5,576 nt of DNA from Prolixibacteraceae bacterium. Lineage in GTDB: Bacteria > Bacteroidota > Bacteroidia > Bacteroidales > Prolixibacteraceae. Of the stretch, positions 316 through 5,576 are shown one piece after another. The stretch lies in NCBI GenBank assembly GCA_018399395.1, contig JAGYOI010000106.1:1-5576 (forward strand), in the 5' to 3' direction. Within the stretch, counting starts at the first letter, position 1, and every line of letters starts with the position of its first letter. Below the pieces are notes generated by a model that had not been told where the DNA came from, did no database searches, and was given only the letters and a program-made list of their open reading frames with translations. Both the position numbers and the translations under genes were made by a program.

Positions 316-828
316 ATGGCAAATGAACCTGAACATGCTGTTAAACCATGCCAGTGCAGCGAAGTAAGCGAGGCCGAACTTTTCGAACGCTTAACGACAA
401 TTGTGCGCTCGCAACGAACAGTCCCCGGGGCACTCATCCCGGTTTTACAAACAGCCCAAAACCTTTTTGGCTACCTTCCCGAAAAAGCACTTCGTATTAT
501 CAGTAAAGAACTAAAAAAACCGTACAGCGAGGTTGCCGGTGTTGTTGGTTTTTACTCATATTTTTCAACAGTTCCCAAAGGCGAGCATACCATCCGGGTT
601 TGTCTGGGGACTGCTTGTTATGTGCGTGGCGGGCAAGATGTTTTGCGCGCCCTTCAAAACGAACTCGATATTGGCGTTGGTGGCACTACGCCCGACCGTA
701 AATTCTCACTTGAGGTTGGCCGCTGCTTTGGTGCATGCGGGTTGGCTCCGGTGGTTATGGTTGGCGACCAGACTTTTCAGCGTGTAAAGCCTAACAAAGT
801 TGGCGAAATACTGAAAAGCTTCGAGTAA
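316..828 (+). CDS. hydC: [FeFe]-hydrogenase subunit HydC, NuoE-like thioredoxin-fold [2Fe-2S] protein
   Basis: This 170-residue protein is the small electron-transfer subunit of a soluble, NAD-linked multimeric [FeFe]-hydrogenase. In the family it carries one [2Fe-2S] cluster and docks on the FMN-containing HydB subunit, like NuoE on NuoF in complex I. The N-terminal helical part (about 20-90) has the typical NuoE run around VLQTAQNLFGYLP and VAGVVGFYSYF. The C-terminal thioredoxin-like ferredoxin domain has the four cluster ligands as Cys96-x4-Cys101 (VCLGTACYVRGG) and Cys137-x3-Cys141 (GRCFGACGLAPVV). Length is normal for HydC/NuoE. ATG 316 is the only ATG start in frame after the stop at 292-294; there is no Shine-Dalgarno sequence. 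Two extra cysteines near the N-terminus (Cys12, Cys14) are not part of the family motif. It is the first gene of the operon, with a 71-base gap before hydB. NuoE of a true complex I is excluded by the neighbouring hydA. Confidence 0.93.
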   Translation: MANEPEHAVKPCQCSEVSEAELFERLTTIVRSQRTVPGALIPVLQTAQNLFGYLPEKALRIISKELKKPYSEVAGVVGFYSYFSTVPKGEHTIRVCLGTACYVRGGQDVLRALQNELDIGVGGTTPDRKFSLEVGRCFGACGLAPVVMVGDQTFQRVKPNKVGEILKSFE

Positions 829-899: not shown

Positions 900-3800
900 A
901 TGAGTACACAAAATAAATTAACTTCACCCGGGGAATTCGATAAATACTCCGGAAAACTAATTGAACAATACAAAGACCTTAACAAACAAGCTGATGAAAT
1001 AATACAAGTTTGTACAGGTGGTGGCTGCATAGCTTGCGGTTCTCTCAGTGTTCATTCTGAATTAAAGGCTAACCTCGAAAAAAGGGGAATCGACAAACGG
1101 TTTATCATCAAAACTACCGGTTGCATGGGCCCCTGCTCCAAGGGACCGGTAATAATGATGAAAAAATCGGGCGTTTTCTATGAAAATATTCAACTAGCCG
1201 ATATCGATGAACTGGTGGAACAGCACTTGTTAAATGGTATAACTGTTGAGCGGCTTTTACATCATTCCGATGAAGATGGAAAACCAATAGCCAGCATCAA
1301 CGATATTAAACTTTTCAACCGACAGCGAAAAATTGTGTTGCGCCGCTGTGGCAGTATCGATCCAACCAGTATAAACGATTATGTCGAATCTGGTGGTTAT
1401 GCTTCATTACGAAAAGTTTTAACAAGTTATTCTCCTGATGATGTAATTGGGGAGATGAAAAAGTCGGGCTTGCGTGGCCGTGGTGGTGCCGGATTTCCAA
1501 CCTGGATGAAATGGAGTTTTGCCAAGAAAGAAACGGCCGGTCAAAAATATATGCTTTGCAATGCCGACGAGGGTGACCCCGGCGCCTATATGGACCGCAG
1601 CACGCTCGAAGGCGACCCGCACAGTGTTATCGAGGGTATGGCCATTGGGGGTTATACCATTGGGGCTACCCGTGGTTTTGTTTATGTGCGTGCCGAATAC
1701 CCGCTGGCCATCGAACGGCTGGCTAAAGCCATTGAGGATGCACGCGAAATGGGGATTATCGGCAAGGACATCATGGGGACAGGTGTCGATTTTGAACTTG
1801 ATATCCGAATGGGCTCCGGAGCTTTTGTATGCGGCGAAGAAACTGCGCTGATGGCCTCGATTGAAGGCAAGCGCGGAGAACCACACCCTCGTCCGCCATT
1901 CCCAACCACTGCCGGCCTTTGGGGTAAGCCAACCGTGCTGAACAATGTAGAAACACTGGCAAATATTAATACCATTATCGATAAAGGTGGCGACTGGTTT
2001 GCACAATATGGAACCGGTAAAAGCCGGGGCACAAAGATTTTTGCAATGGCAGGCGCCATAAAAAATTCGGGGATGTACGAAGTGCCCGTTGGAACAACAC
2101 TTGGCGACCTGATTTACGATATTGGGGGCGGCACAAACAGTGGAAAACCTTTTAAGGCAGCACAAATTGGCGGGCCGTCGGGTGGTTGTATTCCCAAGCA
2201 GCACCTGAATGTTTCGCTTGACTATGAATCGCTCAACGAGCTGGGTGCCATTATGGGCTCGGGTGGTTTGGTAGCCATGGACGAAGATACCTGCATGGTT
2301 GATGTGGCAAAATTCTTTCTCGATTTTGTGGTGGAAGAAAGCTGCGGAAAATGTACCCCGTGCCGTGTTGGCACCAAGCGGATGTACGAAATTCTCGACC
2401 GTATTACCACTGGATATGGCGAGGAAGGCGACATTGAAAAGCTCGAACGGCTAGGCAACTGGATTAAGAAAACATCACTGTGTGGTTTGGGGCAGTCGGC
2501 CCCTAATCCCGTACTTTCTACCATACGATATTTCAGGCATGAGTACGAAATGCATATCCGCGACCATAAATGCGAGGCCGGCGTTTGTGCCAAGTTGGTG
2601 CGCGCCCCATGCCAAAGTGCATGTCCGGCTGGTGTTGATGTGCCGGGTTTTGTTTCACTTACAGCCGAAAAGCGTTATGCAGAAGCACTTCGCCTGCACC
2701 GCGAACGAAACCCGTTTGCAGCTGTGTGTGCCAGGGTTTGCTTCCATACTTGCGAAGATAAATGCCGCAGGGCAACACTTGACACACCGGTGTCTATCCG
2801 CGGTGTAAAACGTTTTATGGTTGACCAGGAGATTACCATTCAAACACCTGAAGTACGCGAAAATGAAGAAAACGCGAAACGTAAAATCGCTATCGTTGGT
2901 GCGGGGCCGGCGGGCTTGTCGTGTGCTTATTTCCTGGCACGTTTAGGTTATAAGCCTATAGTGTTGGAAGCTGAACATCGCCCGGGAGGTATGCTTGTGC
3001 AAACCATTCCGGCTTATCGACTGCCACGTGAGATTCTTGCCCGCGAAATCCGCATGATTGAAAACATGGGCGTGGATATTCGCACCGGATTGGCCCTTGG
3101 TAAGGATTTTACCCTGCAATCGCTTAAAGATGAAGGCTACGAAGCAGTATTTGTGGGCGTTGGTAATCCGCAAGGCGTGAAGCCGCCCATCCCGAATATC
3201 AACAGTGAAGGCGTGGTTGATGCATTGAAATTCTTACAAACATACAACCTGCGCGGTTCAGTGCCGGTAGGTAAAAATATTATTGTGGTTGGGGGTGGCA
3301 ACGCGGCCATCGATGCGGCACGTACCGCGGTTAGGCTTGGTGCCGAAAAAGTGAGTATCGTTTACCGCCGTACACAAGGCGAAATGCCTGCATGGGCCGA
3401 AGAGATTGATGCGGCTGTTGAAGAAAAAATTGAGCTGCTCACTTTAACCAATCCTAAAGAAATAATTGTTGAAAACGGAAAAGTAGCCGGAATGCATTGT
3501 GTTCGCATGAAACTCGGAACCTTCGATTCAAGCGGGCGCCGCCGTCCGGTCGAGAGTGACGAATCGTTTGTTCTGGATGCCGACCAGGTGATTATTGCAA
3601 CCGGACAAACACTTGATACTGATAAAATTCTTGATGGCACATCGCTTGAGCTGAAAAGCAAGTCGCAAATCAAGTGCGACCCGCGCACCGGGCAAACATC
3701 TGTGCCGTGGGTTTTTACCGGTGGTGATGCGGCAACCGGTCCGTCTTCGGTAATTGAAGCAGTAGGCGCAGGCGAACGGGCAGCCGTTGGTATCGATGAG

Positions 3801-4019
3801 ATGTTGACCGGAAAACTTCATGCTTTTTGGCGCGAAGAAAAGGTGAACGATACCTATTTCGACCCCGATGCCGAACCGGCAAAGTATCCACGTACACATA
3901 TGGTGATGTTGCCTGCCGGGCGACGGATGCACAATTTTGACGAGGTGGAACTGGTGTGGCCCGAAAATGAAGCCATTCGCCAGGCTCGCAGATGTTTGAG
4001 GTGTGATTATGGTAATTAG
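900..4019 (+). CDS. hydB: HydB: NuoF-type NADH/FMN subunit of [FeFe]-hydrogenase fused to a GltD/NfnB-like NADPH oxidoreductase
   Basis: This cytoplasmic flavoprotein has 1039 residues, well above the usual HydB size of about 600. Residues 30-115 form a thioredoxin-like [2Fe-2S] domain (Cys38, Cys43, Cys75, Cys79). Residues 130-550 are the NuoF core: the FMN/NADH loop GLRGRGGAGFP (190-200), CNADEGDPGAYMDR (220-233), GAFVCGEETALMASIEGKRG (307-326), and the [4Fe-4S] ligands Cys482, Cys485, Cys488 and Cys528. HydB normally continues into a ferredoxin-like domain with two [4Fe-4S] clusters. Here KCEAGVC (557-563) is kept, then a GltD/NfnB-type module follows: Fe-S cysteines 571, 575, 610, 614, 618 and 622; the FAD site GAGPAG (667-672); the NADP(H) site VVGGGNAAID (796-805) with YRR at 822-824 and EMPA; and FTGGDAATGPSS (939-950) for FAD. 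The C-terminus ends RRCLRCDYGN. NAD(H) use by the first half and NADP(H) use by the second are family-based. One frame runs through the junction, so this is a true fusion. The ATG at 900 follows an A-rich stretch without a Shine-Dalgarno sequence. The hydA gap is 32 bases. Confidence 0.93.
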   Translation: MSTQNKLTSPGEFDKYSGKLIEQYKDLNKQADEIIQVCTGGGCIACGSLSVHSELKANLEKRGIDKRFIIKTTGCMGPCSKGPVIMMKKSGVFYENIQLADIDELVEQHLLNGITVERLLHHSDEDGKPIASINDIKLFNRQRKIVLRRCGSIDPTSINDYVESGGYASLRKVLTSYSPDDVIGEMKKSGLRGRGGAGFPTWMKWSFAKKETAGQKYMLCNADEGDPGAYMDRSTLEGDPHSVIEGMAIGGYTIGATRGFVYVRAEYPLAIERLAKAIEDAREMGIIGKDIMGTGVDFELDIRMGSGAFVCGEETALMASIEGKRGEPHPRPPFPTTAGLWGKPTVLNNVETLANINTIIDKGGDWFAQYGTGKSRGTKIFAMAGAIKNSGMYEVPVGTTLGDLIYDIGGGTNSGKPFKAAQIGGPSGGCIPKQHLNVSLDYESLNELGAIMGSGGLVAMDEDTCMVDVAKFFLDFVVEESCGKCTPCRVGTKRMYEILDRITTGYGEEGDIEKLERLGNWIKKTSLCGLGQSAPNPVLSTIRYFRHEYEMHIRDHKCEAGVCAKLVRAPCQSACPAGVDVPGFVSLTAEKRYAEALRLHRERNPFAAVCARVCFHTCEDKCRRATLDTPVSIRGVKRFMVDQEITIQTPEVRENEENAKRKIAIVGAGPAGLSCAYFLARLGYKPIVLEAEHRPGGMLVQTIPAYRLPREILAREIRMIENMGVDIRTGLALGKDFTLQSLKDEGYEAVFVGVGNPQGVKPPIPNINSEGVVDALKFLQTYNLRGSVPVGKNIIVVGGGNAAIDAARTAVRLGAEKVSIVYRRTQGEMPAWAEEIDAAVEEKIELLTLTNPKEIIVENGKVAGMHCVRMKLGTFDSSGRRRPVESDESFVLDADQVIIATGQTLDTDKILDGTSLELKSKSQIKCDPRTGQTSVPWVFTGGDAATGPSSVIEAVGAGERAAVGIDEMLTGKLHAFWREEKVNDTYFDPDAEPAKYPRTHMVMLPAGRRMHNFDEVELVWPENEAIRQARRCLRCDYGN
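2592..4016 (+). other. Fused GltD/NfnB-like module within hydB (about residues 565-1039)
   Basis: This part alone resembles the small subunit of glutamate synthase, NfnB, and related NADPH-dependent Fe-S flavoproteins. It has an N-terminal helical Fe-S region, then two nucleotide-binding folds. The first carries FAD (GAGPAG with Glu690 at the end of the second strand). The second carries the pyridine nucleotide; the YRR at 822-824 followed by EMPA is the family feature associated with the 2'-phosphate of NADP(H). In Nfn this type of subunit holds the bifurcating FAD. Whether this copy bifurcates or only passes electrons cannot be read from the sequence. The domain boundary is approximate. Confidence 0.85.
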
Positions 4020-4051: not shown

Positions 4052-5576
4052 ATGAAAAATACGGTCTATATAAATAAAAAAGCTGTTGAGGTTGAACCGG
4101 AAGCAACAATTCTGGATGCAGCTGCCCGTGCGGGCATAAAAATACCAACCCTTTGTCATCTCGAAGGACAAATCCCAAAAGGCGCATGCAGGGTATGCAT
4201 GGTTGATGTTGAAGGTGCCAAAAATATGGTGGCTTCGTGTACCACACCGGTAACCGATGGAATGAAAGTGGTAACGAACTCCCGCGAAGTTCGCGAAGCC
4301 CGTAAGTTTGTGCTTGAGTTGCTTATTTCTGAACATTGCGGCGAATGCAAAACCTGTGTAAGGAATGACGATTGCGAGTTGCAACGATTGGCTATAGAGT
4401 TGGGCGTAATGGACATTCCTTACGAAGGAGAAAAGCTGGCAACCCGTATTGACGATTCAACACCGGCACTGGTGCGCGACTCGGGCAAATGCATCAAATG
4501 CCGCCGCTGCCTTACCGTGTGTAACGAAGTACAGGGAATTGGGGCATTGGCAGCCCAGGGGCGAGGTTTCGAATCGGTTATCGGGCCGGCTTTCGACAAT
4601 GCGCTCGATGGGGTAGAGTGCGTACAGTGTGGACAATGCGCTGCGGTGTGCCCGGTAGGTGCTATCACCGAAAAAGAACACATAGACTATGTGTGGGATG
4701 CAATCGAGGATCCCTCGAAGTTCGTGGTTGTGCAAACCGCACCGGCCATTCGTGCTGCACTGGGCGAGTGTTTCGACTACGACCCCGGTACATTGGTAAC
4801 AGGTAAAATGGTATCGGCATTGCGGCTTATAGGTTTCGACCGCATTTTTGATACCAACTTTACAGCCGACCTCACCATTATGGAAGAAGGTACCGAATTG
4901 CTAACCCGGCTCAAAACAGCACTGGTTGATAAAAAACAGGTGGCTTTGCCAATGTTTACCTCCTGCTCGCCCGGATGGATTAAATACGCTGAATATTTTT
5001 ATCCTGAATTTTTAGATAATATTTCAAGCTGTAAGTCGCCCCAACAAATGTTTGGTGCTGTGGCCAAAACCTATTTGGCTAAAAAAGAAAATGTTGACCC
5101 GAAAGATGTGGTTGTGGTTTCGGTAATGCCATGTACCGCGAAAAAATTCGAGGCCGGCAGGGATGAGATGAATGCCAGTGGTTTTCAGGATGTGGACTAC
5201 GTACTTACCACCCGCGAACTGGCACGAATGATAAAACAAACCGGTATCGATTTTAAAGCACTTGACAATGAAAAAATGGATTCACCATTGGGACAAAGCT
5301 CCGGTGCAGCCGATATTTTTGCTAATACAGGTGGTGTGATGGAAGCAGCTGTTCGTACAGCTTACGAAATAGTAACTGGTAAAGAACTTCCGCTCGAAAA
5401 CCTTCATATTAAAGAAGTGGCAGGGCTTGAAGGTGTTAAAAAAGCCAGTTTAAAAATCGAAGGTTGCAAACCCGAATGGAGTTTTCTCGAAGGGGTTGAA
5501 ATGAAGGTGGGCGTTGCACACGGCCTGGGCAATGCACGAAAGATAATCGAAGCAATACGTGCCGGCGAAACTTTTC
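4052..5576 (+). CDS. hydA: [FeFe]-hydrogenase catalytic subunit HydA, 3'-truncated by the window end
   Basis: 508 codons are visible with no stop; the gene leaves the window. The protein makes or oxidises H2 at an H-cluster fed by a chain of Fe-S clusters. In order it has a plant-type [2Fe-2S] domain (Cys35, Cys46, Cys49, Cys63), a His-ligated [4Fe-4S] site (His95, Cys99, Cys102, Cys108), and two ferredoxin [4Fe-4S] motifs (Cys147/150/153/157 and Cys190/193/196/200). The catalytic domain follows: FTADLTIMEE with Glu279, Glu282 and Arg286 of the known proton path, then TSCSPGW (303-309), Ser325, and the second H-cluster motif MPCTAKKFE (359-367, Cys361). The third motif (ExxxCxxGCxxGGGxP) should lie just past the window. 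TSCSPGW differs from the usual TSCCPxW; see findings. There is no signal peptide and the modular layout is that of soluble, multisubunit enzymes. ATG 4052 gives the normal family N-terminus (MKNTVYINKKAVEV). The context with hydC and hydB supports a trimeric, NAD(P)-linked complex rather than a monomeric hydrogenase. Maturases HydE, HydF and HydG are not in view. Confidence 0.93.
   Translation, partial: MKNTVYINKKAVEVEPEATILDAAARAGIKIPTLCHLEGQIPKGACRVCMVDVEGAKNMVASCTTPVTDGMKVVTNSREVREARKFVLELLISEHCGECKTCVRNDDCELQRLAIELGVMDIPYEGEKLATRIDDSTPALVRDSGKCIKCRRCLTVCNEVQGIGALAAQGRGFESVIGPAFDNALDGVECVQCGQCAAVCPVGAITEKEHIDYVWDAIEDPSKFVVVQTAPAIRAALGECFDYDPGTLVTGKMVSALRLIGFDRIFDTNFTADLTIMEEGTELLTRLKTALVDKKQVALPMFTSCSPGWIKYAEYFYPEFLDNISSCKSPQQMFGAVAKTYLAKKENVDPKDVVVVSVMPCTAKKFEAGRDEMNASGFQDVDYVLTTRELARMIKQTGIDFKALDNEKMDSPLGQSSGAADIFANTGGVMEAAVRTAYEIVTGKELPLENLHIKEVAGLEGVKKASLKIEGCKPEWSFLEGVEMKVGVAHGLGNARKIIEAIRAGETF

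What the first reader, a model, noticed from the sequence alone, without database searches (positions are those of the whole stretch)
900..4019. HydB fused to a complete NfnB/GltD-like NADPH oxidoreductase: a possible H2-NAD-NADP-ferredoxin hub
Seen: one uninterrupted frame encodes a full NuoF/HydB core and then a full GltD/NfnB module with its own FAD and NADP(H) sites, next to hydC and hydA. Known: HydABC couples H2 to NAD(H) and ferredoxin, and NfnAB couples NADPH to NADH and ferredoxin; some acetogens (Sporomusa) have hydrogenases with separate Nfn-like subunits. Inference: here the same link is built into one polypeptide, so H2 formation could draw on both NADH and NADPH, or H2 oxidation could reduce both. 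Related fusions probably exist in databases as long NuoF or NAD(P)-binding proteins, so the architecture may not be new, but its biochemistry is likely little studied.
Basis: partly seen in the sequence, partly recalled or inferred. Interest (0 to 1): 0.7.

Follow-up and report, generated by a model that had tools for sequence, protein, structure and literature searches.

The report
Hydrogenase swapping ferredoxin for NADP(H)
One bacterial gene joins the NADH-site core of an electron-bifurcating hydrogenase to a GltD/Stn-family module exactly where the ferredoxin domain normally sits; the same join recurs in genome bins of many phyla, and the enzyme is predicted to couple hydrogen to NADH and NADPH instead of NADH and ferredoxin.

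Summary
The fusion is real: one 1039-residue frame between hydC and hydA. Residues 1-567 are a bifurcating-type HydB core; 568-1039 are a complete GltD module. (1) HydB is not complete: its C-terminal two-[4Fe-4S] domain, the ferredoxin exit in solved HydABC and Stn, is gone, and GltD starts there. (2) The module is closest to the non-bifurcating module of StnC (lysine at the proximal cluster), not to NfnB (glutamate).
In 161 of 161 aligned fusions the last hinge cysteine and first GltD cluster cysteine are 8 residues apart and no ferredoxin-type motif occurs; 20 of 20 unfused HydBs fetched from the same family have two. The published bifurcation marks that I could map are kept (161 of 161). 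Of 69 fusion loci, 49 lie by an [FeFe] HydA, 14 by a [NiFe] hydrogenase and 6 show neither, so the fused core looks like an interchangeable carrier module.
Best reading: a ferredoxin-free variant of the Bfu/HydABC design with NADP(H) in ferredoxin's place, giving H2 from NADH plus NADPH or the reverse. The published Bfu definition asks for the missing domain. Ten full-text searches gave no description. Activity is untested.

The parts
316..828 (+). hydC/nuoE: 170-aa thioredoxin-like [2Fe-2S] subunit; likely cluster Cys at 96, 101, 137, 141
900..4019 (+). hydB-gltD fusion, 1039 aa
900..2600 (+). HydB (BfuB) core, residues 1-567: N-terminal [2Fe-2S] domain, FMN/NADH domain, SLBB, [4Fe-4S] B1
2553..2588 (+). 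hinge (Zn or B2) site: H552, C558, C563 (fourth ligand C465 at nt 2292-2294)
   Evidence: invariant in 160 of 160 relatives; ligands as named in PMC9304861 section 6, Zn site in PMC9499530 passages
2601..4016 (+). GltD/StnC-type NADP(H)-FAD module, residues 568-1039, in place of the HydB ferredoxin domain
2610..2810 (+). cluster ligands of the module: C571, C575, C614, C618, C622 and K637 (StnC K170 equivalent)
   Evidence: grouping into distal and proximal cluster recalled from dihydropyrimidine dehydrogenase
2898..2915 (+). FAD Rossmann motif GAGPAG, residues 667-672
3363..3371 (+). YRR, residues 822-824, expected NADP(H) phosphate site
   Evidence: 160 of 160 relatives; role recalled from GltD/NfnB
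3993..4004 (+). C-terminal CLRC, residues 1032-1035, remaining cluster ligands
   Evidence: 158 of 160 relatives, 2 gapped at that column
4052..5576 (+). hydA, [FeFe] hydrogenase catalytic subunit, first 508 of about 588 aa; cut by the contig end
4958..4978 (+). H-cluster L1 motif TSCSPGW of HydA
5126..5152 (+). H-cluster L2 motif MPCTAKKFE of HydA

Best explanation
The operon encodes a trimeric [FeFe] hydrogenase (HydC, HydB-GltD, HydA) whose bifurcating-type HydB core carries a GltD/Stn-type module in place of its ferredoxin domain, so it would likely couple H2 to NAD(H) at the FMN and to NADP(H) at the FAD, with NADP(H) standing where ferredoxin stands in HydABC. Shown by sequence: the core keeps the FMN domain, cluster B1 ligands, the hinge His/Cys site and the published bifurcation marks that I could map; the two-[4Fe-4S] ferredoxin domain is absent; the module keeps ligands for two [4Fe-4S] clusters and FAD and nucleotide motifs, and starts 8 residues after the hinge in every fusion aligned. 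Inferred: electrons travel H-cluster - HydA clusters - FMN, split there between NAD+ and HydC, and the second branch runs HydC [2Fe-2S] - GltD distal [4Fe-4S] - proximal [4Fe-4S] (Lys637) - FAD - NADP+. Predicted net reaction: 2 H2 + NAD+ + NADP+ <=> NADH + NADPH + 2 H+, probably run toward H2 in fermenting cells. With -280 mV (NADH) and -380 mV (NADPH) the equilibrium H2 pressure is about 150 Pa, against about 3 Pa for NADH alone and about 16 kPa for NADH plus ferredoxin at -500 mV. Untested: all activities, the coupling, and the direction.
For: Match to HydB stops at 567-569 and the StnC match begins at 568. 161 of 161 fusions, window included, have spacing 8 from C563 to C571 and no C..C..C...C motif. 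Comparison free of selection on that motif: 20 of 20 unfused HydBs fetched from genomes of the same family, of the hits, have two such motifs, 13 and 43 residues after the hinge. C465, H552, C558, C563 invariant in 160 of 160 relatives and 12 of 12 further ones. GGPSG, Ala229 and Met231, published marks of bifurcating beta subunits (PMC7311640 section 17), in 161 of 161 and 12 of 12. Lys637 = StnC K170; K in 148 of 160, His in 12. Confident model, pLDDT 87.6, pTM 0.82. The fused core is constant while the partner changes: 49 [FeFe], 14 [NiFe], 6 neither seen, of 69 loci, as the BfuBC core behaves in PMC9304861. All 11 unfused canonical HydBs found in the 14 fusion-bearing genomes of the family keep the ferredoxin motifs, so both types coexist in 11 of 14.
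Against: No biochemistry. The fusions were found by similarity to this one and are partly redundant (87 of 161 remain at under 88% identity). Bifurcation may need the true B3/B4 clusters: PMC9499530 says they are believed essential, and without them the core could be uncoupled. Ferredoxin could still dock on HydA. The NAD-NADP gap is only about 0.1 V, so coupling gains less than with ferredoxin. Some structural alignments to HydB-type chains run past residue 567 (9mqx_B to 626, 8a6t_B to 609; 9n5u_B, 9n5v_B and 9bp5_B to 1037-1039), so the module partly overlies the ferredoxin domain of those chains or aligns by accident; I could not tell which. Distances between HydC and the GltD clusters were not computed. 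His replaces Lys637 in 12 of 160 and 6 of 12, so the Stn-type ligand is not universal. Fusions are not shown to be one clade (AU p 0.084). One fusion locus (L104) has no hydrogenase near.
Confidence: 0.55

Rival explanations
1. Uncoupled two-nucleotide hydrogenase: the module simply gives NADP(H) a second door to the same electron chain, so the enzyme reduces NAD+ and NADP+ with H2 independently and also works as a transhydrogenase, with no bifurcation.
For: The clusters believed essential for bifurcation in PMC9499530 (passages) are missing; both nucleotides are two-electron carriers of similar potential; StnC's FAD is argued to be non-bifurcating (PMC10482914).
Against: The bifurcation marks that I could map are kept without exception, including the hinge histidine; the own genome also encodes a hydrogenase whose short HydB lacks them.
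Confidence: 0.25
2. One reading: NADP(H) enters through GltD as an extra substrate while ferredoxin still reacts, for example at HydA, so H2, NADH, NADPH and ferredoxin all meet.
For: HydA keeps its N-terminal cluster domains, which in monomeric hydrogenases accept ferredoxin (recalled).
Against: No ferredoxin-type motif in 161 of 161 fusions; the module replaces rather than adds to the ferredoxin domain; 11 of 14 fusion genomes of the family also carry a HydB with the ferredoxin domain.
Confidence: 0.15
3. GltD module as NfnB: its FAD is itself the bifurcating flavin, fed by or feeding the hydrogenase.
For: Same fold; NfnB chains 5jca_L and 4ylf_B are in the match list.
Against: Closest chains are StnC-type; Lys (or His) instead of the Glu of the two NfnB chains shown; no NfnA in the window.
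Confidence: 0.04
4. The module is a degenerate or structural passenger.
For: None found.
Against: Cluster, FAD and YRR positions kept down to about 45% identity.
Confidence: 0.01

Closest known systems
Bifurcating [FeFe] hydrogenase HydABC / Bfu family (A. woodii, T. maritima, T. kivui)
   Same: HydA, HydB core and HydC; FMN domain, B1, hinge site, GGPSG
   Different: No C-terminal two-[4Fe-4S] ferredoxin domain; a GltD module stands there
StnABC / Nfn-Bfu transhydrogenase (S. ovata 8oh5, C. saccharolyticus 9bov, T. sibiricus 9n5u)
   Same: Same two building blocks: a HydB-type core and a GltD module with Lys at the proximal cluster (all three chains)
   Different: In Stn the GltD sits in StnC (electron input side) and StnB keeps the ferredoxin domain; no H-cluster. 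Here GltD is on the B subunit and the input is a hydrogenase
NfnAB
   Same: GltD/NfnB fold, FAD and NADP(H) motifs
   Different: No NfnA, Lys for Glu, hydrogenase partner
Non-bifurcating NADH-dependent HydAB(C) (S. wolfei, S. aciditrophicus)
   Same: HydB without the ferredoxin domain
   Different: Published accounts say those lack clusters B2-B5 and GGPSG; the hinge site and GGPSG are kept here
C. autoethanogenum Hyt/Fdh complex
   Same: Hydrogenase linked to NADP(H)
   Different: There NADP(H) acts together with ferredoxin (PMC6288185 passages); no GltD module is mentioned in the passages I saw

Membership tests
Bfu family (PMC9304861) | BfuB with the NuoF FMN, SLBB and NADH_4Fe-4S domains | tested here: met
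Bfu family (PMC9304861) | BfuB ferredoxin domain IPR017896 carrying clusters B3 and B4 | tested here: not met
   tested by Pfam (no Fer4 family but Fer4_20), by the end of the HydB match at 567-569 and by motif (none in 161); InterPro itself was not run
Bfu family (PMC9304861) | B2 ligands C438, C/T476, H525, C531, C536 (A. mobile numbering) | tested here: met
   C465, T503, H552, C558, C563 by the 7t2r_B alignment; position 503 is T, C, S or V in relatives
Bfu family (PMC9304861) | couples NAD(H) and ferredoxin to a third substrate | not testable with these tools
   no assay
Bifurcating beta subunit (PMC7311640) | GGPSG; Ala/Glu and Met at T. maritima 232/234 | tested here: met
   GGPSG 424-428, A229, M231; 161 of 161; the 232/234 equivalence was set by the shared DPGAxMDR stretch
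Bifurcating beta subunit (PMC7311640) | Phe at T. maritima 367 | not tested
   position not mapped
Bifurcating beta subunit (PMC7311640) | additional [Fe-S] domains | tested here: inconclusive
   the ferredoxin domain is missing but two GltD [4Fe-4S] sites are added
Stn family | GltD module with Lys ligand (K170) | tested here: met
   Lys637 aligned with StnC K170
Stn family | GltD fused to a NuoG-type subunit, StnB with its own ferredoxin domain, no H-cluster | tested here: not met
NfnAB | NfnA partner and Glu ligand at the proximal cluster | tested here: not met
   no NfnA gene in the window; Lys637
[FeFe] hydrogenase group A, trimeric | H-cluster motifs L1, L2, L3 | tested here: inconclusive
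   L1 TSCSPGW and L2 MPCTAKKFE in the window; L3 beyond the contig end, present as EIMTCPGGCIGGGGQP in the 92% relative

The most novel reading that the evidence does not exclude
A cross-phylum, ferredoxin-free branch of the Bfu bifurcating enzymes in which a GltD module replaces the ferredoxin-exit domain, making NADP(H) the low-potential partner: these enzymes split H2 electrons between NAD+ and NADP+, or merge NADH and NADPH into H2, and use the same fused core with [FeFe] and [NiFe] hydrogenases and perhaps formate dehydrogenase.
Probability: 0.45. Interest if true: 0.78.

Novelty: new variant of a known kind. Interest (0 to 1): 0.62.

Why it matters
Where ferredoxin leaves HydABC, and whether the mobile B3/B4 domain is essential for bifurcation, are open questions; this family is a natural swap experiment at exactly that domain. 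If it works as predicted it defines a hydrogen link to the NADPH pool, shifts the H2 pressure at which NADH can be discharged, and adds a class that the published Bfu definition (which asks for the missing domain) would not be expected to collect.

Tried and rejected
Assembly error or gene split: rejected, the same join is found in many independent assemblies. Single origin of all fusions: not shown. AU p 0.084 for all 40 fusion rows, 0.42 without L039; the tree used 66 of 91 core rows, after L025, L073 and L075 were left out and near copies thinned. In that tree L026, whose partner is beyond its contig end, was labelled [FeFe] by default and L039, beside a Mo-type oxidoreductase, was labelled [NiFe]. 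A first comparison set of 22 unfused HydBs had been sorted out of 31 non-fusion rows by having two ferredoxin motifs, so it proves nothing about their presence; the other 9 rows were 3 cut by contig ends (L025, L073, L075) and 6 NuoF-like (one of them, L081, ends in a hinge-like stretch without a ferredoxin domain). I replaced it with 20 HydBs chosen without that test; they are all from one family. Rnf association: rnfC above the cut-off in 7 of 14 fusion genomes and 14 of 14 non-fusion genomes of the family (28 of the 60 genomes were given; Fisher p 0.006), and in 0 of 8 distant Bacteroidota with the fusion. Four of the seven lacking it are one genus and two another, and no controls were run for the distant eight, so I use it only as a hint. 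All 28 genomes carry [FeFe] H-cluster domains, fusion or not, so this did not discriminate. Distances in the model: no coordinates are laid in the Python box. No chain covering the whole fusion stood in the rows shown. Literature: ten full-text searches, of which I read the listings, showed no HydB-GltD fusion; passages of PMC6085437, PMC7382037 and PMC6288185 gave none either. Subscription papers and preprints are not held. The supplement of the Bfu paper was not seen, so absence of these sequences from its census is inferred from its stated domain definition.
Full report
What is there. The window is the whole of contig C9 of an incomplete metagenome-assembled genome (2.18 Mb, 508 contigs, 56.7% complete). 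The closest named relatives are Prolixibacteraceae (Bacteroidota), the nearest 91% identical over the fusion (L006). Three genes follow each other on the + strand: hydC, a 1039-aa fused hydB, and hydA cut by the contig end. In L006, which appears to be the same contig as G033:C154 of a same-genus genome (same length and positions), the order is the same and hydA is complete at 588 aa with all three H-cluster motifs.

How constant it is. I aligned the window with 51 full-length fusions from genome contigs (of the 77 loci) and 109 of the 120 listed proteins (those of 950 aa or more); 87 of the 161 remain at under 88% identity. C465, H552, C558, C563, the B1 ligands, C571, C575, C614, C618, C622 and YRR 822-824 are the same in 160 of 160 relatives; C1032 and C1035 in 158 with 2 gapped; C610 in 158; position 637 is Lys in 148 and His in 12. 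The spacing C563 to C571 is 8 in 161 of 161, and none has a C..C..C...C motif. As a comparison I fetched 20 unfused HydBs from the hits, all 11 from fusion-bearing genomes and 9 others: 20 of 20 have the hinge motif, GGPSG and two ferredoxin motifs, 13 and 43 residues after the hinge. Twelve more fusions from the genome census keep the fusion signature, with position 637 Lys in 6 and His in 6. Published marks that separate bifurcating from NADH-only beta subunits (GGPSG; Ala and Met at T. maritima 232/234; PMC7311640 section 17) are kept in 161 of 161. The short HydB in the own genome (L002) has Thr and Lys there, no GGPSG and no hinge site. A further mark (Phe 367) was not mapped.

Why NADP(H) probably stands in for ferredoxin. 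First, position: the module replaces the ferredoxin domain rather than adding to it. Second, chemistry: Lys637 corresponds to StnC K170, and the StnC FAD is argued to be non-bifurcating (PMC10482914), so the bifurcating site, if any, is the FMN. Third, modularity: of 69 fusion loci (79 rows, 10 second copies dropped), 49 have an [FeFe] H-cluster gene and 14 a [NiFe] large subunit within 3.5 kb on the same strand; in 6 neither was seen: L017, L026 and L054 end at the fusion, L028 ends soon after, L039 has the start of a Mo-type oxidoreductase, L104 a glutamate-synthase-domain protein; L028 and L054 do have the [NiFe] small subunit upstream. Pfam was run on partners of L027, L043, L047, L051 (BfuA only), L039 and L104, and on HydA of L006; the other assignments rest on BLAST. 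In the Bfu scheme the NAD/ferredoxin core is constant and the third-substrate partner varies (PMC9304861: abstract, first parts of sections 4-6 and passages read); here the fused core is constant in the same way. Fourth, coexistence: 14 of 60 genomes of the family carry a fusion (one of them, G015, split over two contigs, and G039 cut), and 11 of these 14 also carry an unfused HydB with the ferredoxin motifs; G000 (incomplete), G044 and G053 do not show a canonical one at that threshold. Five of the unfused copies were fetched with flanks and all sit beside their own hydA.

Distribution. Beyond the family, 9 of 247 genomes drawn from the phylum, own genome included, pass E 1e-240; in 7 of the 8 others a hydA lies next to the fusion and in one (G231) not (the fused frame of L105 was read). 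Other hits are in contigs binned as Ignavibacteriota, Spirochaetota, Planctomycetota, Armatimonadota, Bacillota, Myxococcota, Thermodesulfobacteriota, Pseudomonadota, Balneolota and Thermoplasmatota; bins of mixed sediments may carry stray contigs. On a core tree 30 of the 31 rows labelled [FeFe] fusion group together with modest support (85/78); one origin for all fusions is neither shown nor rejected.

Energetics. With -280 mV for NADH, -380 mV for NADPH and -500 mV for ferredoxin (Table 1 of PMC9304861), the equilibrium H2 pressure is about 3 Pa for NADH alone, 147 Pa for NADH plus NADPH and 15.7 kPa for NADH plus ferredoxin. The predicted enzyme would sit between an NADH-only hydrogenase (this genome has a candidate) and HydABC.

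What is not shown. No activity, cofactor content, direction or coupling is known. The uncoupled rival, with two nucleotide doors on one chain, is the serious alternative, because the clusters believed essential for bifurcation are the ones replaced. Ferredoxin contact at HydA is not excluded. The cluster grouping inside the module (C1032, C1035, C571, C622 and C575, C614, C618, K637) is recalled from dihydropyrimidine dehydrogenase and not computed. That IPR017896 is the ferredoxin domain is recalled, and InterPro was not run. Novelty is judged against ten searches of open-access full text only.

Noticed in passing
L002 (own genome, contig C35): A second [FeFe] hydrogenase operon: hydC, a short 394-aa NuoF-type hydB without hinge site or GGPSG, and a hydA 59% identical to the window's; looks like the NADH-only S. 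wolfei type.
   Followed up: partly
L089 4253-12001: In G044 the fusion operon is directly followed by an operon with a short NuoF-type hydB and another hydA, two hydrogenases with different predicted carriers in tandem.
   Followed up: no
window K637; fusion alignments: The Stn lysine-ligand position is His in 12 of 160 and 6 of 12 further fusions; a possible histidine-ligated [4Fe-4S] cluster.
   Followed up: partly
L027, L029, L032, L037, L043-L047, L051, L053, L055, L060, L064: The same fused HydB-GltD core lies by [NiFe] hydrogenase subunits, including in contigs binned as Thermoplasmata archaea.
   Followed up: partly
L104 5660-11122 (- strand): Fusion with a short BfuA and a glutamate-synthase-domain protein (PF01645), no hydrogenase near.
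   Followed up: partly
L065 5860-13150: Unfused version: a separate GltD gene beside a HydB that keeps its ferredoxin motifs, with a molybdopterin formate-dehydrogenase-like subunit.
   Followed up: partly
L092 2482-6750, L093: About 790-816 aa NuoE-NuoF fusions with ferredoxin domain beside a 516-521 aa Fer2 plus GltD-like protein, possibly a compact Stn-type transhydrogenase in the same family.
   Followed up: partly
fusion alignments, residues 38 and 43: The N-terminal [2Fe-2S] (B5) cysteines 38 and 43 are lost in 14 of 51 locus fusions and 7 of 12 further ones.
   Followed up: no
window HydA 4958-4978: L1 motif is TSCSPGW, Ser for the usual second Cys (as in A. woodii HydA); the HydA beside the unfused HydB in G033 has TSCCPAW.
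   Followed up: no
genomes: Half of the family's fusion genomes lack rnfC while all 14 compared non-fusion genomes have it; confounded by genus.
   Followed up: partly
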